From: Leifsonia xyli
GTDB taxonomy: Bacteria > Actinomycetota > Actinomycetes > Actinomycetales > Microbacteriaceae
Reading direction: 5' to 3'
Assembly: GCA_001647635.1 (NCBI GenBank)
Contig: CP014761.1
Location: 2,046,001-2,110,000, forward strand
DNA length: 64,000 bases
Made by a program: the position numbers and the translations under genes. Under the pieces are notes generated by a model that was not told the DNA's origin, ran no database searches, and was given only the letters and a program-made list of their open reading frames with translations. This document shows positions 2,552 to 22,497 of this stretch, piece after piece. Each line of letters begins with the position of its first letter. Position 1 is the stretch's first letter.

Positions 2552-2826
2552 CATGCTCGGTGGCGGCCAGAAGGAGGGCGGAAGCAAGAGACGACAAATG
2601 CTCGGTCGCAGGCGACAAGTGCTCGCTCGGAGAGCTGGCCGTGACAAGAAGGGACAATCGCAAAAACCAGCGGCAACGAAGTAGCCCACAAAAGAAGACC
2701 AACAAGACAAACAAGCCCAGACGAAAGGAGACAACACGGAAGAACCACGAGAGAAACACAAGAGCGAATGCACGTAGGCACTCTTCGAGGTGTGCGCGCC
2801 AAATGCGCGCCGAGATGCACGTGCCG
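2552..2826 (+). other. Leader of the relaxase gene with repeats and a T-free tract; oriT candidate
   Basis: The segment holds imperfect direct repeats CGACAAATGCTCGGTCG (2592-2608) and CGACAAGTGCTCGCTCG (2613-2629), with a partial third copy near 2553. Then 2683-2768 has no T on the plus strand (86 bases). Two GCGCGCC copies follow at 2794-2800 and 2805-2811. The frame is open here, but its composition is unlike the downstream gene and the preferred relaxase start is at 2842, so I treat it as non-coding. Repeats and a strand-asymmetric tract beside a relaxase gene fit an origin of transfer. This is inference. Confidence 0.4.
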
Positions 2827-2842
2827 CCGGAAGTTCTAAGTG
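2827..2842 (+). promoter_or_regulatory. Shared transfer-gene 5' motif, copy 1 (relaxase)
   Basis: CCGGAAGTTCTAAGTG recurs at the 5' ends of the SSB gene (10065-10080, minus) and of the secretion operon (18002-18017, minus). Here its last G is the first base of the relaxase GTG codon. The GGAAG could also serve as the ribosome site. Confidence 0.55.
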
Positions 2843-5574
2843 TGAGAGGTGGAGTAGCGCGTTGGAAACGTGGGCAGGCGGCCCAGGGGGTCAAGCAGGC
2901 GGTTCGATACGCGTTCGGCGGCGTCTGCGACGCGACCCTCACGGCCAAAACCGCTGACGGCGCTCTGGCCGCTGCCGGGTACGCGGACGCGGTGATGACC
3001 CGGTACATCGTCGAGAACGGCACGATCCGTGACGACCTCCTCACCCGATCCCAGCTGAAGCAATGGGTCGACGGCGTGGACCCGCTCACCGGCGAGCGAC
3101 GGGGTCGGGATCTGGAGTCGCCGGTCGCTGATCTGATTTTGGATGCGACGATCAACGCGCCGAAGTCGTTCTCGATCGCGGCGATGCTGGACCCCGAGCT
3201 ACGGGCCGCGTATGAGGACCTGCAGGATCGGTTGCGGGATCGGATCATGAAGCTGTGGCAGGCCGAGCTCAACGCCCGCCGCGGGAAGCAGGGTTCTATC
3301 CGGGAGGACCTCGCTCGTATCGAAGTCGTCGAGCTGAGGCACGAACGGTCGCGGTCCCTCGACCCGCACAAGCACCGTCATCTCTGGCTCAACGTCAAGG
3401 TCCAAGGGCTTGACGGGAAGTGGTCGAACGTCGATACCCGCGTCGCGCTGCGGTTCCAGAACGTCATCAATGCCGAAGGGGACCTCGCCTCCAAGACCGA
3501 CCCAACCTGGATCGCCGCTCTAGCTGCCAAAGGCTTCGACTTGAACTCGGACGGGGAGATAGCGCAGCTGCAGCATCTGGTGCGGCCGCTATCGAAGCGC
3601 TCCGCGCAGATCGAGTCGAACAAGGCGGCACACCTGCGGCAGTGGAAGGATCAGCACCCTGACGAGGAGCCTTCCCCCACAGTGCTGACTCAGATCGACC
3701 AGTGGGCTTGGTCGGCGGGTCGACCGAACAAGCCGGGCCAGATGAATGAGGAGGATTGGGCTTCGATAGTCATGGCCGAGCTTTTGCGTGCCGATCCGGA
3801 TGTCGGGCGCCCGCGGACGGCGGTCGGGACTTCTTCGGTCGGCGTCGAGAACCTGGATGTTGAGCTCCTCGCGGCAAAGGCGATCGTAGACGCCGACGCC
3901 CGGTCCATCGGCACGGGAGGCCGCTTTAGCGACATGGATGTTCTGGCCGGCGCGATTCGCGCTGTCGCAAATTCCGGCGTCGTCGCCGACCGGCAACACT
4001 TGGCTGAGGTCGTTAACGGAGTGGTCTCCGTCGCCATCCGCACCCACACGGTGACCCTGCTCAGTGAGGCGAATATGCCGGCGCACATCAAGCGACGAAT
4101 GGCGACATCGACCGCGACCTTGAAAGCTACCCTCACACAAAGGATCGAACGAATTTCGGTTCCGGGCGTAGCGCTGAACGCAGCTGAGGTGAAGGCCGTT
4201 GGACAGATCGTAGAGCCAGAACGTTCGCTAGACAGAGGCCAGCTCGCCGGAGCCGCGGCCATAGGCGGCTCCTCGAGAAGTGTCGCCGTGTCGGGCGCCG
4301 CAGGAACAGGCAAGACAACGATGCTGAAGGTCGCCGGTGCGGCGCTTCGTCGACGTGGCCGCAACATGATCATCGTTGCGCCGACGAAAAAGGCGTCGTC
4401 CGTGGCTGGTCGCGAGACGCAGAGTGCGTCTTCGTCGCTGCATCAACTTCTGCATGACTATGGGTGGCGTTGGACCACTAATAGGGCTGGGGGTACGGAC
4501 TGGCGCCGCCTCCAGATCGGAGAACGCGATCACAACACCGGGCGCGTGTACGACGGTCCTCACATTGCAATCCGTCCCGGCGATCGGATCGTCGTGGACG
4601 AGGCCGGGATGCTCGACCTCGAGGCAGCGAATGCGCTCGTCGAAGTGCTGGAACGAACCCAGGCGACGGTAGCCATGGTCGGCGACGAACGTCAGGCGCT
4701 GCCTGTCGGACACTCCGGTGCAATGGCTCTCTTCTGGGCTCACTCGGCGGACCAGGTTGAGCTAACGACCATCCACCGATTCAAGGATCCCGTCTGGGCA
4801 GACATGACGTTAAGCCTGCGTGATCCACATGGTCGCGAGGCGTCCGAGATCGTCGCCGGGGCACTCGTCGACACCGGACACGTGATTCTCGCAAGAAGCG
4901 ACGCCGAGGCTCGAACTGAGATGGTCGCAGCCTGGTTCGCCGCGAAGGAGCAGCGACGGTCTATCGCGCTGGTCGCTGCGACGCACGCTGAAGCATTAGC
5001 GATCAGCGAGGACATCCAGGGTATTAGAGTTCGAGCGGGCGAGATTGACACCACCCGATCCACCTCGGGTCAATCTGGACAGCCCATCTTCGTGGGCGAC
5101 ATCGTTCAGAGCCGACGAAACGACCGCGAGTCAGAGGTTCAGAATCGCCAGCATTGGGTAGTCAAAGGAATTACTCGAGAACATGTGATCCTTGCATCCT
5201 CCGCGGACTCGACCGATCTGAAGAGGGTGACTCACGAATATGCCCAAGCTCACATGCACCTGGGCTACGCATCGACGGTTTATGGAGTTCAGGGCGAGAC
5301 CACCGATCGTGCGCTCGTGGGACCCGGCGTAGATGCCGCGGGACTTTACGTCGGTCTTACGCGGGGCAAGCAAAAGAACGACATCGTTCTGGTTGCGCCG
5401 ACCCCAGCTTCGGCGAAGTCGCAACTCGTTGAAATGATGCAGCGCCAGGCCATCGAAGAGACCCTCGATGCTTCCCGGGCCGCAGCCCGAGAAGAGTTCG
5501 GTCGCGCGGCCCACAGTGAAACGGGACCATCGACCATGGCCGACCAAAGCGGAGGCGCTGTTCTCGGCAGATGA
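2842..5574 (+). CDS. MobF-type (TrwC/TraA) relaxase-helicase
   Basis: It nicks and unwinds the element's DNA for conjugative transfer. The N-terminal TrwC relaxase domain (about 1-300) has APKSFSIAAMLDP and the metal-binding histidine cluster DPHKHRH (about 174-180). Tyr47 and Tyr55 are nick-tyrosine candidates. A RecD-like helicase follows, with Walker A GAAGTGKT (about 487), Walker B VVDEAG (about 584) and a late YVGLTRGK motif (about 835). I chose GTG at 2842 because related proteins begin with an RGGV-type sequence and GGAAG lies nine bases upstream. The frame stays open back to 2560, but that part is compositionally different. At 910 residues it is of usual size. It sits alone on the plus strand, convergent with the cargo genes. 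Confidence 0.9.
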   Translation: MRGGVARWKRGQAAQGVKQAVRYAFGGVCDATLTAKTADGALAAAGYADAVMTRYIVENGTIRDDLLTRSQLKQWVDGVDPLTGERRGRDLESPVADLILDATINAPKSFSIAAMLDPELRAAYEDLQDRLRDRIMKLWQAELNARRGKQGSIREDLARIEVVELRHERSRSLDPHKHRHLWLNVKVQGLDGKWSNVDTRVALRFQNVINAEGDLASKTDPTWIAALAAKGFDLNSDGEIAQLQHLVRPLSKRSAQIESNKAAHLRQWKDQHPDEEPSPTVLTQIDQWAWSAGRPNKPGQMNEEDWASIVMAELLRADPDVGRPRTAVGTSSVGVENLDVELLAAKAIVDADARSIGTGGRFSDMDVLAGAIRAVANSGVVADRQHLAEVVNGVVSVAIRTHTVTLLSEANMPAHIKRRMATSTATLKATLTQRIERISVPGVALNAAEVKAVGQIVEPERSLDRGQLAGAAAIGGSSRSVAVSGAAGTGKTTMLKVAGAALRRRGRNMIIVAPTKKASSVAGRETQSASSSLHQLLHDYGWRWTTNRAGGTDWRRLQIGERDHNTGRVYDGPHIAIRPGDRIVVDEAGMLDLEAANALVEVLERTQATVAMVGDERQALPVGHSGAMALFWAHSADQVELTTIHRFKDPVWADMTLSLRDPHGREASEIVAGALVDTGHVILARSDAEARTEMVAAWFAAKEQRRSIALVAATHAEALAISEDIQGIRVRAGEIDTTRSTSGQSGQPIFVGDIVQSRRNDRESEVQNRQHWVVKGITREHVILASSADSTDLKRVTHEYAQAHMHLGYASTVYGVQGETTDRALVGPGVDAAGLYVGLTRGKQKNDIVLVAPTPASAKSQLVEMMQRQAIEETLDASRAAAREEFGRAAHSETGPSTMADQSGGAVLGR

Positions 5575-5581
5575 CGTGAGG

Positions 5582-5998
5582 CTAGCGCTTAGCCAGACCG
5601 GCACTTCGAGCCTGCCGACCTAAGCCGTTGACGCCATCTAGCGCCCCGTCGCGCGCCCGAAAACGAAAGAGCGCAACACCTAGAGCATCGGCTCGGTCGC
5701 GGGCATCCGGAAACACACCTCCGGGCACGAAGAGCAGGGGGGATCGCCCGTCCCCGGCCGAGGCGGCGGCGGCGCGCTCTACAAGTTCGACATCGAGGTT
5801 ACCCCGTCGGTTTTCGACCCATGCCAGAAACCCGCGACTATAAAGGTCGCATACCTGCCGATCCGCTGAGGTCGTCGCGCGAGTGTCTCCTGCGCCGAGA
5901 TGGATCATCCATTCGCGGCACAGTTCTACAGCTTCCTCGTCCGAAACGCCCAGAGGGCGAGGGCCCGGCGCGCTTGCAGTCACGCGATCAGTCTGCAC
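5582..5998 (-). CDS. Mrr-like restriction endonuclease-fold protein with altered active site
   Basis: The 138 residues follow the Mrr/REase pattern: an N-terminal helix (DEEAVELCREWMIHLGAGD), a strand with the acidic residue (Asp51 in VCDL), the strand normally bearing QxK (here WVENRR, 60-65), then LLFVPGG, the helix ARDRADALG and the strand VALFRF, with a closing DGVNGLG. The QxK lysine is not evident (Glu62-Asn63-Arg64), so catalysis is doubtful or changed. The start is GTG at 5998. It lies 44 bases after the HEPN gene on the same strand, as the third gene of the cargo trio, and ends 7 bases from the convergent relaxase stop. It may be an effector subunit or DNA-binding partner. Confidence 0.65.
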   Translation of the reverse strand: MQTDRVTASAPGPRPLGVSDEEAVELCREWMIHLGAGDTRATTSADRQVCDLYSRGFLAWVENRRGNLDVELVERAAAASAGDGRSPLLFVPGGVFPDARDRADALGVALFRFRARDGALDGVNGLGRQARSAGLAKR

Positions 5999-6042
5999 CG
6001 ACCCACCGAGGTTGTCACTGGAGGCCTTCCCGCGCAGAAGCG

Positions 6043-7659
6043 CTATTCCTGAACCGGAAGCGGTATTTCGATCCGCTTTTCGCTGTCGCTTGAAACTGCC
6101 CGCTGCCCTTCGGCTATGAGGTCAAGCAGATAAAGATAAGCGGAACGGATTACCTGTAATGTCTGGACGCATCCATCAACCAATTCGAAGAGGCCAATGG
6201 TGTTTTGCGAGTCATCGGACACGCCCCCCGGCTCAATGAGGTTGACTCTGACTAGACGGTGCGTACCCGCGTTGCGAAGCGCCAGTGCCTCCGCGTAAAG
6301 GCCTTCGCGGTCGACATCAAACGATAGTTCGGCGAGTGCAATTGCGGCGCCCACCGGTAGTGGAGCATGGGAACGCGGCAGCTTAGGACGCAGAACACCT
6401 GATCCCTTGTCAAACCAATAGCTTCGGAACCAAATGTCGGACGGCGGCATTCGCGTCTCGAAGTGAAGATCTGCAGTTACTGCGATCTTGTCGAGCACAT
6501 CCAGCGCTGCGCGTTGTGCAAGTATCAGTTGCGCTGCCGGCTGACCGTAGATCGAGTAATCGAGCGTATTCGTGTATGTTCCTGTGTCGTCAGGATCCTG
6601 CTTGAAAATGTGGCGCAGCAGCTTCTCCTGCCCCTCGAATGCAAGAGCTCGGGCGGCGAGGAACTCTGCCTTGAGTACGTTTAGTGCCGCGAACACCGTC
6701 GGAACTGATTGTCCATCGATCATCCGGATTGCCGGGGGGCTAGCGTCGTCCCATCGAGGATTGTCAGACCCGAGACCTTCGATGGCCTCCGACAGGGCGA
6801 GTCGATTGGCTCGGATCCACTTTTGATACGGGTCGGAAGTGTCACCCGGATGCTCGTCGTGCCCATGCGTGTCGATTGGCTGAAGAGCGTCCCATCGCTG
6901 CGCTGTCAGTTCTCCCGCGATCTGGACTGTGTGCGGTCGAAGGCGCTTTGCGAGATCAACATACTTGTTGAATACGGCAGCATAGTGTCCGCCCGGTCCA
7001 CGTCCGGTCGCGAGGCGACGCTTGATCAGCTCCGCTATGTTTCCAGCCGCATTTCCATTGTTCGGGTACTCCTCGAGCGCGTCGGCGTACGCTTCGTACG
7101 CTTCAACCCATCGGCCGGACTCATCGAGGATATTGGCCAGATTGCAGAGAGCTAGAGAGCGACGGAAGCCGTCCAAGTCTTCAGAATGGCCGGCCTCTGC
7201 GAGCAACAAACGGCAGCGTCTCAGCAACTCCCGATTCTCAAGTTCGAACGGGGCTCGCCTAAGGCTCGCCTTTGTTGCTGGGCGACGGCGCCAGTCGGCC
7301 AATTGGAGTTGATAACCCTCCATAAGTCCATTCGCCAGGAAGTAGCTTGCGAGGGAACGCTGACTAGGGACTGCAGACTCCGCTGCGAGTACATCTTCGG
7401 CCCACTGCACCCCGGTCGCGAGAGCCTCCTGGCTCGCTCGTCGACCCCCCGCGTCAATCTGCAAACCAGCGAGATCTAGCAGTAGGCCGAAGAAGTCCTC
7501 ACCCGCTAAATCATCTGGGACCGTCAAGTCCCTAAGTTCCCTCTCAAGTCGTTCTGTCGATTTCAGCGCTAGGCCGGGGGCGGAGTCGACGAGCGCGCTA
7601 GTTTGTTGTATCTCGCGGCGAATCTTGAGTTTCGCCGCTCTACCTCTCCTGCTAACCAC
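6043..7659 (-). CDS. TPR protein with LA2681-like HEPN RNase domain
   Basis: Likely an RNA-cutting effector of an abortive-infection type. The N-terminal half is helical, with a tetratricopeptide-like repeat at about 165-200 (RSLALCNLANILDESGRWVE). The C-terminal region (about 278-475) matches the LA2681-like HEPN pattern: WIRANRLALSE, a helix with FLAARALAFEGQ, NTLDYSIYG, LDKIAV, SDIWFRSYWF and the catalytic RX4H motif RNAGTH (462-467). HEPN domains of this class are often metal-independent RNases in toxin and phage-defence systems. The start is GTG at 7659, five bases after the upstream stop, so it is probably translationally coupled to the DisA_N-like gene. No strong Shine-Dalgarno is visible. 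The function is inferred from the fold and context. Confidence 0.75.
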   Translation of the reverse strand: MVSRRGRAAKLKIRREIQQTSALVDSAPGLALKSTERLERELRDLTVPDDLAGEDFFGLLLDLAGLQIDAGGRRASQEALATGVQWAEDVLAAESAVPSQRSLASYFLANGLMEGYQLQLADWRRRPATKASLRRAPFELENRELLRRCRLLLAEAGHSEDLDGFRRSLALCNLANILDESGRWVEAYEAYADALEEYPNNGNAAGNIAELIKRRLATGRGPGGHYAAVFNKYVDLAKRLRPHTVQIAGELTAQRWDALQPIDTHGHDEHPGDTSDPYQKWIRANRLALSEAIEGLGSDNPRWDDASPPAIRMIDGQSVPTVFAALNVLKAEFLAARALAFEGQEKLLRHIFKQDPDDTGTYTNTLDYSIYGQPAAQLILAQRAALDVLDKIAVTADLHFETRMPPSDIWFRSYWFDKGSGVLRPKLPRSHAPLPVGAAIALAELSFDVDREGLYAEALALRNAGTHRLVRVNLIEPGGVSDDSQNTIGLFELVDGCVQTLQVIRSAYLYLLDLIAEGQRAVSSDSEKRIEIPLPVQE

Positions 7660-7664
7660 TCGGT

Positions 7665-9482
7665 TTACCGCCGCATGGCCGCTTCAAGGAAGTAGCTATC
7701 GTTCATTTCCGGATTGGGCGAAACCTTCGCAAACCCGACCCGAGTAATCGACGGGGCTTTGCTCGCAAGCGCAAGACGCTCACGTTCATCCTCGATACGA
7801 AGGCGAGCTTCGTTCACCCGTGCGCACTGTTCGTCGCTGAGGTAGAACGCAAGGGACTCAACATGCTTCGACTTCGACGATGCTCGCTTGAAGTCGAGCG
7901 GCCTAGCCGTCGAACTCTCAACGAGCGCAGTGACTGCACGTTCGACCTCGTCGCGCGCCACCCTTCGGCGGAGGTCCGGAATGAGGTTGATCATCCCGTC
8001 CTCGCTGACAATGACAATGAGACAGGCTCCCGACTCAGATCCCTGGTGGTAGCGCACCGCAGAGTTGTAGCGTGCTCCTCGCGCCTGGTCGCCTAGACCA
8101 GTGACGGCGACTCCATCAAGAATTACGCCTACGGCGTGACACTTGGCCGCCGGATCGACTAAGACTGCGCCGTCGATTGACGTAACCGCTTCGAGGCTCG
8201 AACTATCGAGGTATACAGGGTCGACGGCGAGAGCCTGAGGAGCCAGTCTCGCTGCCTCGCCACTCGCGTCGCGATGCACCACGACCATCGTGCCGTGTTG
8301 CTGGCGAGTCGCAGCAGTTGTCAGTTCCCACAGCATCTCCGAATCGCTCGAGGCACCGAAAATCCGATCCACAGTGTCTACGAATTTCGCCTTGTCGATC
8401 CTCGGACGCGGGAGCGAGGGGTTGCCGTTGTCTACCCGGACAAGCGCAGTCGCGCCGTGGTGCAGTTCCCAAGAGCCGCGACCGACCACGCGAATGGAAT
8501 ATATGGCTTCGAGCTGGAGATCGTAAGTGGAGCTCATTCTGCCCAAACCAAAGACGCTGGCTCCGTCCGTCAACAGAGCGAGGTTCGGGCCCGTCATTTC
8601 CAACGCCTTGCGGAAGGAGCGGGTTCGCTTCGGATCCACGCCGTTGACTAGTCCGATCTCCACCTCGATGTGAGGATCGTCGGGCTTACAAAGGAGGATG
8701 GTTCCAATGCCAGTTCGACCCTCGTAAGGCTGAGCCGCGAGGTCGTTGAGAGCATCGACGAGCTCCATTCCCTCCCAGTTGCCATGCACGAACACTAGAC
8801 GCCGGATGAAGTCCGACAGCGCTCGACGAAGCAGGTCCATGCCCTGCCGAATGATGAAGTCTCGGCCAGGTGGCTCCTGGTGAGACATTAGATCTGTGGT
8901 CACCGAGAGAATCTCATCTACGACGGCTGCCTGCACCGATAGCACCACCTCAATGTCACCGTCGGCCTGAGGATTGCTGAGCGCAGGATAGTTCTCCCAC
9001 CTGTTAGCTATGACGCCGAGGACGGGATAAACACGATAGCCCTCAACCTTCGCCGGTGCCCCTGCGACGAAACGCCGGTTCAACTCGGGCTCAAGCGCGT
9101 TGAGTCGCATCTCAAGAGTTTCGCGACGGCAGCGCTCCAGCAAACCACGAGAGAACCGTTCTGATGATGCGGCATCGCCAAAGAAGCGATTCCGGTCCGG
9201 ATGCTCGTCGCACGCCGCGGCAGCAGCGTCTTCGACGTCCGCGAACAGCGCGGGCTCGATGCCAGCCAATTCACCGGAGATTTCAACGCAGATCGGCAAG
9301 CTCATCGGACCATCCTCATGAAAGCCGACCAGGATCGCGACCGGGGCGACTTCAGCACCAAGCTCTGAGAGGCAACGCGCCGCAAGTCCGCGAACACTCG
9401 AGCAAAAGATGTCTTGATGTCCCCACATGAACTGTTCGATGATCCGTTCCACAGGTGCAACATTGTCAGACGGTGGCGACAT
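7665..9482 (-). CDS. DisA_N-like (diadenylate cyclase fold) protein with N-terminal sensor region
   Basis: A 605-residue protein whose part at about 390-500 matches the DisA_N/DAC nucleotide cyclase fold: HGTMVVV, the DGA motif (437-439), GLGDQARGARYNSAVRY (463-478) and IVIVSEDG (489-496). In known diadenylate cyclases the DGA and RHR motifs bind ATP and metal. Here RHR is replaced by Arg-Tyr-Asn (471-473), so product and activity are uncertain. The long N-terminal region, ending in LALLTDGASVFGLG (301-314), resembles the sensor regions fused to DAC domains. The ATG at 9482 has no good ribosome site and the GTG at codon 11 is an alternative. First gene of a trio with a HEPN protein and an Mrr-like protein, so it probably senses a threat or makes or binds a signal nucleotide. 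Confidence 0.75.
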   Translation of the reverse strand: MSPPSDNVAPVERIIEQFMWGHQDIFCSSVRGLAARCLSELGAEVAPVAILVGFHEDGPMSLPICVEISGELAGIEPALFADVEDAAAAACDEHPDRNRFFGDAASSERFSRGLLERCRRETLEMRLNALEPELNRRFVAGAPAKVEGYRVYPVLGVIANRWENYPALSNPQADGDIEVVLSVQAAVVDEILSVTTDLMSHQEPPGRDFIIRQGMDLLRRALSDFIRRLVFVHGNWEGMELVDALNDLAAQPYEGRTGIGTILLCKPDDPHIEVEIGLVNGVDPKRTRSFRKALEMTGPNLALLTDGASVFGLGRMSSTYDLQLEAIYSIRVVGRGSWELHHGATALVRVDNGNPSLPRPRIDKAKFVDTVDRIFGASSDSEMLWELTTAATRQQHGTMVVVHRDASGEAARLAPQALAVDPVYLDSSSLEAVTSIDGAVLVDPAAKCHAVGVILDGVAVTGLGDQARGARYNSAVRYHQGSESGACLIVIVSEDGMINLIPDLRRRVARDEVERAVTALVESSTARPLDFKRASSKSKHVESLAFYLSDEQCARVNEARLRIEDERERLALASKAPSITRVGFAKVSPNPEMNDSYFLEAAMRR

Positions 9483-10598: not shown

Positions 10599-10999
10599 TG
10601 CTGGTCCAGCGACGCTTCGATGTAGTGGGCAATCTTGGCTTGAAGCCGGGCGATGGCCTGGAGGGAGGCGGTGCGGCGGGAGACGAAGCCGGAGAACACC
10701 CGGTCGCGGTCGATGAGCTGGTGGACGTATTCGTGGCAGCGCGGGTGCAGCGCGATCAGATCCTGGTGTTGTTCGTGAGCGGTCCAGCCGTGCGGGGTTT
10801 GGGTGACGCCGCGGTAGTCGAGGTGGTGCAGCTCGAGGGGGCGGGAGTCGCCAGCGCCGAGACAGAGCGCACATCGCGCATCCCCGTTGCGGAGCTGCTC
10901 GTCCGTGAACCACCGGTCGCGGCGGGCGAACCAGGCGACGGAGTGCAGGTAGGAGGTGCGGTAGCTGTTGTCTCGGGCGGGGCGTCGACGGTTGGACAT
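10595..10999 (-). CDS. Small HNH-like protein
   Basis: 134 residues starting at ATG 10999, overlapping the coupling-protein stop by ATGA. It has CALCLGAG (43-50), LELHHLDYRGV (55-65) and DLIALHPRCHEYVH (80-93), the CxxC...HH...H...C-H layout of an HNH endonuclease or zinc-finger fold, though the catalytic Asn is not obvious. A basic N-terminus supports nucleic-acid binding. Being fused into the secretion operon between the coupling protein and a Trp-rich protein suggests a DNA-processing accessory. Nuclease activity is not certain. Confidence 0.65.
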   Translation of the reverse strand: MSNRRRPARDNSYRTSYLHSVAWFARRDRWFTDEQLRNGDARCALCLGAGDSRPLELHHLDYRGVTQTPHGWTAHEQHQDLIALHPRCHEYVHQLIDRDRVFSGFVSRRTASLQAIARLQAKIAHYIEASLDQQ

Positions 11000-12804
11000 C
11001 AGCTTCCCTTTCCCGCTGAGGTGCGTCGATCGAGAGCGGCTTGGTACTGCTCTGCGAACACGACCTGCTGGTCGAGCTCGGTGAGGTTCTTCCCGGCGCT
11101 CACCTGGTGGGCGTCGTCGCGGTCGGTCCAGCCGCGGAGGTCGAGGAGAATGCCGCGACGGTTGCGGTAGGCGAGGAGGCCGATGGTTTCGGGCATGCGG
11201 CGGATCTCGTCGATCGTCATCACCGGAACCTTTTCGTTCTGCACGTTGGTGGAGGATCCGGTGTCGTTGTACGAGTGCCCGGTGTTGCGGATGCGGCGCA
11301 GCCCGAGGAGGGATTCGATGTCGCGCAGGTGGTCGACGTCGGACGCGCCGCCGAGGAGGAGCTTCGCGGTGGCCGCGGACCAGATCGTGTCGGCCTCCGA
11401 CCGTGACCACGCGGTCTCGGCCTGCGAGAGCGCCTGGAGCACGACCACGGTGGAAATGCCGATGCCGCCACCGTCGGCCATGATCCGAGGGAGAGCTGGC
11501 CAGGAGAACATGTTGGCGATCTCGTCCAGGATTAGCGCGAGTGGGAGGTCGAGGCGGGAGCCGGGTGAGGCGAGGGCTTTGCGGCGGGCGGTCTCGACGA
11601 TGTCGTCGAGGATCGCGCCAAGGAACCCGCCGACGGAACCGGCACCAGCGCCGGTGCCGACGAGGTAGAGGCTGTTGGATCCGGCGAGGAAAGCGTCGAG
11701 GTCGAACTGCTCCCCCGGACCTGGCGTCATCGCCTTTCGAATCGCTGGGATGGACAGTGGGCGGAGCGCGCCGAAGACGCCGAACCAGGAGTTGGCGAGG
11801 AGTTTCTCGTCGCCGTTGATGATCGCATCCAAGTCCTCGGACCAGCCCGGCGTGCCCTGGTTGGCAAGTACACCGACCGCTTCCAGAGCGAGCCGCGGGT
11901 TCGATCCCCATCGGGCGAGCGCGTCGATTCCTCGGCCGGACACGGCAGCCGCATGGAGTAGGCGGGACAGCACGGAGGAAGAGACCTGCGCCCATTCCTG
12001 GTTGGTCTTCGACGTACCGAGTGCGGTGCCGGCGACGATGGCTTGCCCTCGCTGATCCGCGATGAGCGGGTCCTCGCATCCGGTGACCGGTGAGATCCGC
12101 AAAGCCGAGCGGACGCCGGTGAGCTCCTGCGGGTCGAACACTGTCACGTCGCCGATCCGGGCACGTTCGCGCATGGTGGCGGAGAGGTTGTCGTTGCGGG
12201 TGGAGGTGGTGATCAGAGGGCCGTCCCAGTCGAGGATGGCGTTGATAATGAAGCGATATCCCTTCCCGGAGCGGGGTGCCCCTTCGACGACGATCGAGTC
12301 CTCGATCGAGACGTACACATCTTGGCCATGGGCGCTGCCGACCTTCCACCCGGCCGCGGAGGGCTCCGGGTGGGCCACCGACGGTCGCAAGGTCTTGGCG
12401 CGGCGCAGAGCGGTTCGGGCTGAGGTGTGCCTGCGGACTTCGCTGGGCTTGGCGAGTCCGTCGCGGCCGCGGAGCTCGTGGATGAAGTGCCGGTCCGATT
12501 GCCGGTACCGAAGCCACCAGACCGCGCTTGCCGCGACGGCGCCGAGAAGGAGAAGCACGGCGATGATGTCCAGTACCCGGATCAGGGCGACCGGCGCGGT
12601 GCATTCGGGCTGCAGAGCGAAACCACTCTGGTCGCCACTCATGGCGAGCTGGAGGCCAGCGAACACGCTGTCAGGCTGACCACCACCTCCACAGGCCACG
12701 GTGACGATGGCGCTGGCGATCCCGGTCGTCAGCGCCCCGGCGACGACGACCGCGAAGAGACAGTAGAGAGCGAGGTGGGTCCAGGAGGAGTGGTCGTTTC
12801 TCAT
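10999..12804 (-). CDS. VirD4/TraG-type type IV coupling protein
   Basis: An inner-membrane ATPase that hands the relaxase-DNA complex to the secretion channel. Two N-terminal membrane segments (about 10-34 and 75-97) are followed by a cytoplasmic ATPase with Walker A EGAPRSGKGY and Walker B LPLALILDEIAN. Downstream MADGGGIGISTVVVLQALSQ is typical of TraG/VirD4. The 601-residue length is usual. ATG at 12804 overlaps the VirB4 stop at 12801 by four bases, and its own stop overlaps the HNH-like start, so translation is tightly coupled along the run. Confidence 0.9.
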   Translation of the reverse strand: MRNDHSSWTHLALYCLFAVVVAGALTTGIASAIVTVACGGGGQPDSVFAGLQLAMSGDQSGFALQPECTAPVALIRVLDIIAVLLLLGAVAASAVWWLRYRQSDRHFIHELRGRDGLAKPSEVRRHTSARTALRRAKTLRPSVAHPEPSAAGWKVGSAHGQDVYVSIEDSIVVEGAPRSGKGYRFIINAILDWDGPLITTSTRNDNLSATMRERARIGDVTVFDPQELTGVRSALRISPVTGCEDPLIADQRGQAIVAGTALGTSKTNQEWAQVSSSVLSRLLHAAAVSGRGIDALARWGSNPRLALEAVGVLANQGTPGWSEDLDAIINGDEKLLANSWFGVFGALRPLSIPAIRKAMTPGPGEQFDLDAFLAGSNSLYLVGTGAGAGSVGGFLGAILDDIVETARRKALASPGSRLDLPLALILDEIANMFSWPALPRIMADGGGIGISTVVVLQALSQAETAWSRSEADTIWSAATAKLLLGGASDVDHLRDIESLLGLRRIRNTGHSYNDTGSSTNVQNEKVPVMTIDEIRRMPETIGLLAYRNRRGILLDLRGWTDRDDAHQVSAGKNLTELDQQVVFAEQYQAALDRRTSAGKGS

Positions 12805-21255: not shown

Positions 21256-21270
21256 TAGGCGGCGTGAGTG

Positions 21271-22497
21271 ATGGGGAGCATCGAGAGCTACCAGACAGCG
21301 GGCGGCCGGCGTTACCGGGTCCGCTATCGCGACCCGGATCACCGTTCCCGGGAGAAGGCCGGATTCTCGCGGAAGATCGACGCCGAACAGTTCCTCGCCT
21401 CGACTACCGTCACGACATCGCGAGGTGAATGGGTCGACCCATCGTCGGCCAAGGCTGAAGTCGGCGCACTCGCTGAGGAGTGGCTTGCGTCGCGTAGCAA
21501 CCTGAAGCCCTCATCACTGAAACCGCTGAAGGGCTCCTGGCGTAAGCACGTCGCTCCCAAGTGGGCGCACCGTCGCGTCGGCGAGATCCGGCACAGCGAG
21601 GTGCAGACCTGGGTCGCGTCGATGTCGAAAGCCAGCTCGCCGACCGTCGTGATCCGAGCCCACGGGGTCCTGGCCGGGATCCTTGACATCGCGGTGCGCG
21701 ACCGGCGGATCACACGAAACCCTGCCCGCGAGATCAAGCTGCCTCGAAAGGTTCCCAAGGAGCACGTCTACCTCACCCACCAGCAAGTCCACGATCTGGC
21801 CACAGCATCTGGTGAGCGCGGGCCGATCATCCTCCTGCTCTGCTACACCGGCCTGCGCTGGGCCGAGATGGTCGCGCTGCGCGTGAAGGACATCGACTTC
21901 CAACGGCGGCGCATCCGCGTCTCCGAGAACGCCGTCGAGGTCGACGGGATGATCGAGGTCGGCACCCCGAAATCGCACAAGCGCCGCACGGTTCCGTTCC
22001 CCCACCTGCTCGACCCGGCGCTGCGTCCGCTGGTCGAGGGCAAGGGCCCGGACGACCTCGTCTTCGCCGACAAGCACGGCAAGTATCTGCGCCGCACCCG
22101 GGTGAGCACGGCATCGCGATCCTGGTTCGTGACCGCGCGCCTTACCGCCGGCATCCCACAGATGACCCTTCACGATCTCCGACACACGGCCGCGAGTCTC
22201 GCGGTGTCGGCCGGCGCCAACGTCAAAGCCATCCAGCGGATGCTCGGTCACGCCTCCGCGGCGATGACTCTGGATATCTACGCGGACCTCTTCGACGATG
22301 ACCTGGACGACGTTTCGGCACGCCTCGATGACGCCGCCAGGAAATCAGTTGTGGGGTTTTTGTGGGGGATGGGCACATCTGGGCAGAAAAAACCCCCGGA
22401 ATCAGCGGGATTCCGGGGGTTTTGGGCGGCGGAGACGGAGGGATTTGAACCCTCGGTCCCCTTACGGGGACTCCACCTTAGCAGGGTGGTGCACTAG
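21271..22497 (+). CDS. int: Tyrosine recombinase (integrase) of the ICE
   Basis: It integrates and excises the element at tRNA-Ser. The 408-residue protein (408 from ATG 21271; a GTG at 21268 is in frame) has an Arm-type N-terminus, a core-binding domain (about 60-150) and the catalytic domain with Arg196 (TGLRWAE), His301 and Arg304 (HDLRH), His327 (LGHAS) and Tyr337 (DIYADL). The last 45 or so residues are odd: they are read through a terminator hairpin and then into the tRNA gene on the other strand, giving EGFEPSVPLRG. This tail would change on excision. The gene lies 15 bases downstream of the XRE regulator and is probably co-transcribed with it. Confidence 0.93.
   Translation: MGSIESYQTAGGRRYRVRYRDPDHRSREKAGFSRKIDAEQFLASTTVTTSRGEWVDPSSAKAEVGALAEEWLASRSNLKPSSLKPLKGSWRKHVAPKWAHRRVGEIRHSEVQTWVASMSKASSPTVVIRAHGVLAGILDIAVRDRRITRNPAREIKLPRKVPKEHVYLTHQQVHDLATASGERGPIILLLCYTGLRWAEMVALRVKDIDFQRRRIRVSENAVEVDGMIEVGTPKSHKRRTVPFPHLLDPALRPLVEGKGPDDLVFADKHGKYLRRTRVSTASRSWFVTARLTAGIPQMTLHDLRHTAASLAVSAGANVKAIQRMLGHASAAMTLDIYADLFDDDLDDVSARLDDAARKSVVGFLWGMGTSGQKKPPESAGFRGFWAAETEGFEPSVPLRGLHLSRVVH
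22387..22424 (-). terminator. Terminator of tRNA-Ser(GCT), inside the integrase frame
   Basis: ACCCCCGGAAT and ATTCCGGGGGT form an 11-bp perfect stem with a short loop, followed on the minus strand by six Ts. It lies just after the tRNA 3' end on the element side, so the element may carry the terminator that serves the restored tRNA. Confidence 0.8.

What the first reader, a model, noticed from the sequence alone, without database searches (positions are those of the whole stretch)
5582..9482. Candidate DisA_N-like / TPR-HEPN / Mrr-like defence module in an ICE
Three same-strand genes with gaps of 5 and 44 bases encode a DAC-fold protein with an N-terminal sensor region, a TPR protein with an LA2681-like HEPN domain that keeps the RX4H RNase motif, and an Mrr-like endonuclease fold. 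Seen in sequence: gene order, motifs and close spacing. Known: DAC domains make or bind cyclic di-nucleotides, and HEPN RNases and Mrr nucleases act in phage defence. Inference: a nucleotide-signalled abortive-infection system carried as ICE cargo. I do not know of a characterised system with this composition.
Basis: partly seen in the sequence, partly recalled or inferred. Interest (0 to 1): 0.85.

Follow-up and report, generated by a model that had tools for sequence, protein, structure and literature searches.

The report
Cyclase and RNase defence genes on ICE
A mobile element in an actinobacterium carries two neighbouring genes that look like anti-phage weapons, a likely cyclic-nucleotide-making enzyme and a likely RNA-cutting enzyme, in a slot where its sister elements carry other genes, several of them of defence type; the third gene in the original report belongs to the element itself.

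Summary
The three ORFs, their gaps (5 and 44 bases) and two of three domain calls are right. Gene 1 (7665-9482) is a full-length DACNG-DACNH-DAC protein, homologous to the diadenylate cyclase of DS-2, an experimentally validated defence system (NF053872, 544 bits, below its 630 cut-off). Gene 2 (6043-7659) is a TPR protein with an LA2681 HEPN domain; its RX4H motif is invariant in the window protein and 28 aligned relatives. Gene 3 (5582-5998) shows no Mrr similarity and is not cargo: in 30 of 30 further copies examined it lies tail-to-tail with a TrwC relaxase. The element is a 53.5-kb tRNA-Ser ICE. Its ssb-gene 3 interval is a cargo slot: the 7 sister elements read there carry other genes, with PADLOC defence hits in 5 of the 6 scanned. 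The pair does not recur: 0 of 80 DAC loci have the HEPN, 0 of 11 HEPN loci a DAC. Both genes are modular: DACs lie beside CBASS, SIR2-HerA, PtuA or pAgo genes elsewhere, and one TPR-HEPN follows IetA-IetS. Best reading: two-gene anti-phage cargo, cyclase plus RNase effector; their coupling is plausible but unproven, and two stacked solo systems are almost as likely.

The parts
7665..9482 (-). 605-aa DACNG-DACNH-DAC protein (diadenylate-cyclase-like; relative of the DS-2 DAC, NF053872); first gene of the pair
6043..7659 (-). 538-aa TPR protein with LA2681-type HEPN domain (RX4H); second gene, GTG start 5 bases after the DAC stop codon
5582..5998 (-). 138-aa protein of unknown fold; ICE backbone gene convergent with the relaxase, NOT part of the pair
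2560..5574 (+). TrwC-type relaxase-helicase of the ICE
   Evidence: PF08751, PF13604
9578..10021 (-). ICE single-strand binding protein (ssb); right border of the cargo slot
   Evidence: PF00436
9516..9557 (-). strong hairpin between ssb and the DAC gene (no U tract)
   Evidence: z -3.4, 0 of 200 shuffles as stable
10999..12804 (-). TraD/TraG-like conjugative coupling protein
   Evidence: PF12696
21268..22497 (+). tyrosine integrase of the ICE
   Evidence: PF00589
22427..22453 (.). right attachment repeat: 3' end of tRNA-Ser(gct); its 27-bp twin lies at genome C1:2014941-2014967, left of the window

Best explanation
A two-gene anti-phage module carried in the cargo slot of a tRNA-Ser ICE. Shown: homologies, motifs, operon-like spacing, element and slot. 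Inferred: on infection the DACNG/DACNH region relieves or triggers the DAC domain, which makes a cyclic dinucleotide (most likely c-di-AMP or a relative); this signal licenses the TPR-HEPN protein, a metal-independent RNase, to cleave RNA and abort the infection. Gene 3 takes no part. Because the host family appears to lack DisA, the signal would be foreign to the host.
Against: The pair does not recur: 0 of 80 DAC loci, 0 of 11 HEPN loci, 0 of the 30 sister-element stretches have either gene, and no shared contig length but the window's own among 119 DAC and 120 HEPN hits. No recognised cyclic-nucleotide-binding domain in the HEPN protein. Both genes often stand alone: 50 of 80 DAC loci and 5 of 7 HEPN loci have no same-strand ORF of 100 aa or more within 100 bases. 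The RHR motif of textbook DACs (recalled) is R-[YF]-N here. The 630-bit cut-off of NF053872 is not reached. The only promoter-like site found, at chance level, is inside the DAC gene (8017-7990), so the HEPN could have its own promoter; none was found before the DAC.
Confidence: 0.4

Rival explanations
1. Two independent, self-sufficient defence genes stacked in the ICE's cargo slot. The close spacing only shares a transcript.
For: Both are often solo elsewhere (50 of 80 DAC loci, 5 of 7 HEPN loci) and never together in what I saw. Sister elements hold several unrelated genes in the same slot (L163, L175). Each also lies separately near an integrase related to this ICE's: a DAC in L003, about 5 kb away, and a TPR-HEPN in L127.
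Against: The five-base gap suggests translational coupling. A DAC of this family is essential to a multigene system, DS-2, so such DACs can work with partners.
Confidence: 0.38
2. Guard or decoy logic, as in Panoptes: the DAC makes a nucleotide all the time that restrains the HEPN, and phage sponges or nucleases that remove it release the RNase.
For: Decoy cyclic nucleotides are a published anti-phage logic (PMC12657218, title and start of abstract seen in the listings). The host family seems to lack DisA, so a foreign nucleotide would be a clean signal.
Against: No nucleotide-binding domain seen in the HEPN protein. The HEPN has no DAC beside it in 11 of 11 other loci, so it does not depend on a neighbouring DAC for restraint there.
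Confidence: 0.08
3. The first reader's three-gene abortive-infection system including an Mrr-like nuclease.
For: Same strand and close spacing.
Against: Gene 3 is convergent with the relaxase in 30 of 30 further copies, with neither the DAC nor the HEPN in those stretches; no Mrr similarity.
Confidence: 0.02
4. Not defence: cyclase and HEPN serve ICE regulation or host stress physiology.
For: The 25 Pfam families shown (of 70) for 68 DAC neighbours are mainly transporters, peptidases and GTPases. PADLOC knows none of the three proteins.
Against: Validated defence homologue, a slot with defence genes, and neither gene in any of 30 sister-element stretches, so the element does not need them.
Confidence: 0.1

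Closest known systems
DS-2 (DefensePredictor; phospholipase + cGAS-like CD-NTase + DAC), PMC13092281
   Same: Homologous full-length DAC (NF053872, E 3e-163). A DS-2-like locus on Citrobacter plasmid NZ_CP029730 has a DAC 31% identical to the window's, with motifs DGT and RYN.
   Different: No CD-NTase or phospholipase beside it; the neighbour is a TPR-HEPN protein, and two CD-NTase queries find nothing in the element.
LA2681-type TPR-HEPN family (PMC3710099; PF18733)
   Same: TPR fusion, RX4H motif.
   Different: The paper's table gives operons with TPR genes (passage), not with a DAC. Here it follows a DAC.
IetAS with a third TPR-HEPN gene (locus L128)
   Same: TPR-HEPN as the downstream member of a defence operon.
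   Different: Partners are the AAA ATPase IetA (479 bits) and the S8 protease IetS (1056 bits), not a cyclase.
CBASS (recalled)
   Same: Nucleotide-signalled abortive infection with an effector.
   Different: Cyclase is DAC-fold, not CD-NTase; no recognised nucleotide sensor in the effector.
Panoptes (PMC12657218, listing only)
   Same: Possible use of a cyclic nucleotide to control an effector.
   Different: Other synthase and effector families (recalled); no evidence of decoy logic here.

Membership tests
NF053872 DS2_3_antiphage (DS-2 DAC) | score over curated cut-off of 630 bits | tested here: not met
   544 bits, though 1-576 of 576 positions aligned
NF053872 DS2_3_antiphage (DS-2 DAC) | DACNG-DACNH-DAC architecture with DGA and GxR motifs | tested here: met
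DS-2 system | adjacent CD-NTase and patatin phospholipase | tested here: not met
   neighbours are TPR-HEPN and ssb; no match to either CD-NTase query in the element
Diadenylate cyclase | DAC fold | tested here: met
Diadenylate cyclase | makes c-di-AMP | not testable with these tools
   biochemistry needed
LA2681 HEPN | PF18733 over cut-off with RX4H motif | tested here: met
   101.6 bits against 27; R462 and H467 invariant in 29 of 29 aligned sequences, window included
Mrr-like restriction endonuclease (gene 3) | detectable sequence similarity to Mrr_cat or a solved nuclease | tested here: not met
   W-V-[DE]-N or similar at the place where I would expect the (E/Q)xK motif (motif recalled)
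ICE | integrase, direct-repeat ends, relaxase, coupling protein | tested here: met
CBASS | CD-NTase | tested here: inconclusive
   two CD-NTase queries found nothing in the element and no neighbour is one; other clades and other places in the genome were not searched
Recurrent three-gene or two-gene module | same families together in unrelated loci | tested here: not met
   0 of 80, 0 of 11; metagenome contigs could not be read

The most novel reading that the evidence does not exclude
The DACNG-DACNH-DAC family is a portable infection-triggered cyclase that is plugged into unrelated defence operons (CBASS, SIR2-HerA, Septu-like, pAgo, and here a TPR-HEPN RNase), and in this ICE its product directly gates a HEPN RNase in a host family without DisA: a CBASS-like pathway with a different cyclase and a signal foreign to the host.
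Probability: 0.25. Interest if true: 0.75.

Novelty: new variant of a known kind. Interest (0 to 1): 0.48.

Why it matters
DACs were first validated in defence as part of DS-2, together with a CBASS (PMC13092281). This locus and several relatives put the same DAC family beside RNase, SIR2-HerA, PtuA and pAgo genes instead, so whether the DAC is a general defence signal or a CBASS accessory becomes directly testable with a two-gene construct. The ssb-gene 3 slot of this element family is also a ready place to look for new defence genes in the host's family.

Tried and rejected
Rejected: an Mrr nuclease in gene 3; a recurrent trio or pair; DS-2 membership of the whole locus.

Against my reading: DefensePredictor reports 15 of 30 DAC homologues beside a CBASS, but in the 80 loci nearest the window's DAC I found no match to two CD-NTase queries and one patatin match; other CD-NTase clades would be missed.

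Caution on negatives: the whole-genome PF02457 search missed the window's own DAC, so it says little about other divergent DACs. DisA absence rests, CdaA absence. The NF010009 cut-off is reached in only 3 of 14 control genomes, so I rely on which part of the model is matched: every row listed starts at model position 287 or later of 357. Gene calling in fetched loci was a simple ORF and G+C-by-codon-position script of mine, so some neighbour ORFs may be wrong; one search's output was cut in the middle.
Full report
Observation. The three ORFs stand as described, on the minus strand in the order DAC (9482-7665), TPR-HEPN (7659-6043), gene 3 (5998-5582), with gaps of 5 and 44 bases. Gene 1 is a complete DACNG-DACNH-DAC protein and matches NCBIfam NF053872 DS2_3_antiphage along the whole model (544 bits, E 3e-163, but below the curated 630). 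Gene 2 carries PF18733 HEPN_LA2681 (101.6 bits) after a TPR region. Gene 3 has no match in Pfam, PADLOC or NCBIfam.

Host. One genome listed as 'same genus' (G178) has a contig of 4162015 bases, the length given for Leifsonia sp. EB41, and family members share contig lengths with Herbiconiux and Pseudoclavibacter records. I infer a Leifsonia relative, family Microbacteriaceae (family name recalled).

The HEPN protein. R462 and H467 of RNAGTH are invariant in 29 of 29 aligned sequences (window plus 28 homologues chosen of 120 listed, 250 passing). The HEPN survey of 2013 lists LA2681 as keeping Rx4-6H, fused to TPR and in operon with TPR, and predicts RNase activity for such domains (PMC3710099, passages). 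That paper is the only one in the held library that holds the term LA2681. The model is good (pLDDT 89.8, pTM 0.91), but the fold searches tested the TPR part only.

Gene 3 is element backbone. It was matched in 32 of 398 sampled genomes of the host's family, with up to 5 places in one genome and 3 in the window's own. I fetched 30 of the 52 listed places, the best-scoring ones after the window's own: all 30 have a TrwC-type relaxase convergent with it, one of them (L159) only as a remnant. The 21 weaker places were not looked at; many lie in longer frames. Its profile has no PDB match and no similarity to one Mrr_cat protein; five relatives have no Pfam family.

The element. A 27-bp direct repeat joins the 3' end of tRNA-Ser(gct), window 22427-22453, with genome C1:2014941-2014967, where no tRNA gene was found. 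Overlapping the tRNA end lies a tyrosine integrase ORF (21268-22497). The element so bounded is 53.5 kb and holds the relaxase, ssb and a TraD-like coupling protein. G+C is 0.594 for the DAC, 0.579 for the HEPN, 0.656 for the element and 0.697 for window 26-64 kb, so the pair looks like a recent arrival.

The cargo slot. In 7 of the 30 stretches, ssb, TraD and VirB4-like matches lie within reach upstream of gene 3; an eighth (L180) has an ssb match only. None of the 30 has a DAC or HEPN match. In the 7, the intervals between ssb and gene 3 are 2.1-7.0 kb and hold 42 ORFs by my script; their contents differ, except that L152 and L162 share a ThiF/ubiquitin-like gene type. Eleven of the 42 ORFs were scanned with PADLOC and ten with Pfam. 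Found: QatA and QatC (L174, 181 and 184 bits); a PDC-M71A kinase (348 bits) with multiubiquitin and ThiF-type E1 genes (L152); ThiF-type E1 genes (L160, L162; best PADLOC E1-E2 scores 34-51 bits over L152, L160, L162); PDC-M09A and PDC-S32/AbiJ_NTD4 (L163, 88 and 306 bits); DUF4062 without a PADLOC match (L157); an IrrE-like protease (L175, not scanned with PADLOC). PADLOC hits thus occur in 5 of the 6 intervals scanned with it. The window's pair fills the same slot. Between ssb and the DAC there is a strong hairpin (z -3.4, 0 of 200 shuffles as stable) without a U tract; the consensus scan lists no terminator or promoter there, and its one promoter-like site, at chance level, lies inside the DAC gene.

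Recurrence. None of the 80 DAC loci from GTDB genomes (best 80 of 112 confirmed) holds a TPR-HEPN match. None of 11 TPR-HEPN loci (8 genomes, 3 plasmids) holds a DAC match. Among 119 DAC and 120 HEPN hits the only shared longest-contig length is the window's own. The close metagenomic HEPN relatives could not be read, so recurrence in metagenomes stays open. 50 of 80 DAC loci, and 5 of 7 HEPN loci, have no same-strand ORF of 100 aa or more within 100 bases of the gene (the eighth HEPN genome locus, L133, was left out because its HEPN is split in my ORF map).

Modularity. Around the first 42 DAC loci, 68 neighbour proteins were scanned: 67 of the 73 listed (two DAC pieces and four neighbours from Pedobacter loci with similar neighbours were dropped) plus one added. 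Single scans place hits in L004 (SIR2, then HerA, downstream), L013 (Mrr_cat upstream at 19 bases, PtuA downstream at 26), L014 (pAgo downstream, a PtuA-like gene on the other strand upstream) and L011 (TmtA upstream); one JAB hit was not placed. The 25 Pfam families shown of 70 are mainly ordinary ones. A tblastn search with two CD-NTases and two patatins found no CD-NTase and one patatin in the 80 loci, although DefensePredictor reports a CBASS beside 15 of 30 DAC homologues; so the CBASS link lies in other branches or other CD-NTase clades. The HEPN ORF in L128 follows IetA and IetS with overlapping ends, and that in L131 overlaps an unidentified 366-aa ORF. A DAC copy in L003 (broken by one stop) and a TPR-HEPN in L127 lie separately near integrases related to those of these elements. 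So the two genes seem to travel independently.

Host background. No DisA-type match beyond the C-terminal end of the model was found in the window's genome or in the rows listed for 120 family genomes, 108 of which have such a short match, and no CdaA in the window's genome. An ICE-borne DAC could therefore be the cell's only diadenylate cyclase; the PF02457 search cannot settle this because it missed the window's own DAC.

Mechanism. Most likely the pair is a defence module in which the DAC makes a cyclic dinucleotide on infection and the HEPN RNase kills or stalls the cell. Shown: families, motifs, order, spacing, element, slot. Inferred: cyclase activity, infection sensing, RNase activity, and above all the link between the two. 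The nearest rival, two stacked solo systems, is almost as likely.

Novelty. None of the paper searches made brought up a DAC/HEPN pair, but of their hits only listings and the passages named above were read. The DAC family is already a known defence component; the combination and the slot are new to me. I rate it a new variant of a known kind.

Noticed in passing
L152, L157, L160, L162, L163, L174, L175: The ssb-gene 3 interval of this element family is a slot of changing cargo, with Qat, ThiF/ubiquitin-like plus kinase, PDC-M09/PDC-S32 and DUF4062 genes.
   Followed up: partly
L128:4392-9675: A TPR-HEPN ORF is the third member of an IetA-IetS operon, overlapping the IetS end by four bases: a possible extended IetAS system.
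   Followed up: partly
120 genomes of the host's family: No canonical DisA seen; listed matches cover only the C-terminal end of the model, which suggests an actinobacterial family without the usual c-di-AMP synthase.
   Followed up: partly
L013, L014, L004, L011: DACs of this family lie near Mrr_cat + PtuA, pAgo, SIR2-HerA and TmtA genes.
   Followed up: partly
G000:C1:1957441-1957833 and C1:1278492-1278860: Two further relaxase + gene 3 loci in the same genome; the second (L144) has an integrase-like ORF, 50% identical to the ICE's, and a 1178-aa protein with a NACHT match below its cut-off.
   Followed up: partly
L003:8013-9797: A DAC copy in Leifsonia shinshuensis is broken by one in-frame stop and lies about 5 kb from an integrase.
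   Followed up: no
P0127 and P0303: A TPR-HEPN relative and a gene 3 relative both list a longest contig of 3218 bases; possibly one contig with both, possibly coincidence, as their listed sources differ.
   Followed up: no
window 22347-22368 and genome C1:2015057-2015078: A 22-bp repeat just inside both ends of the ICE, perhaps integrase arm sites.
   Followed up: no
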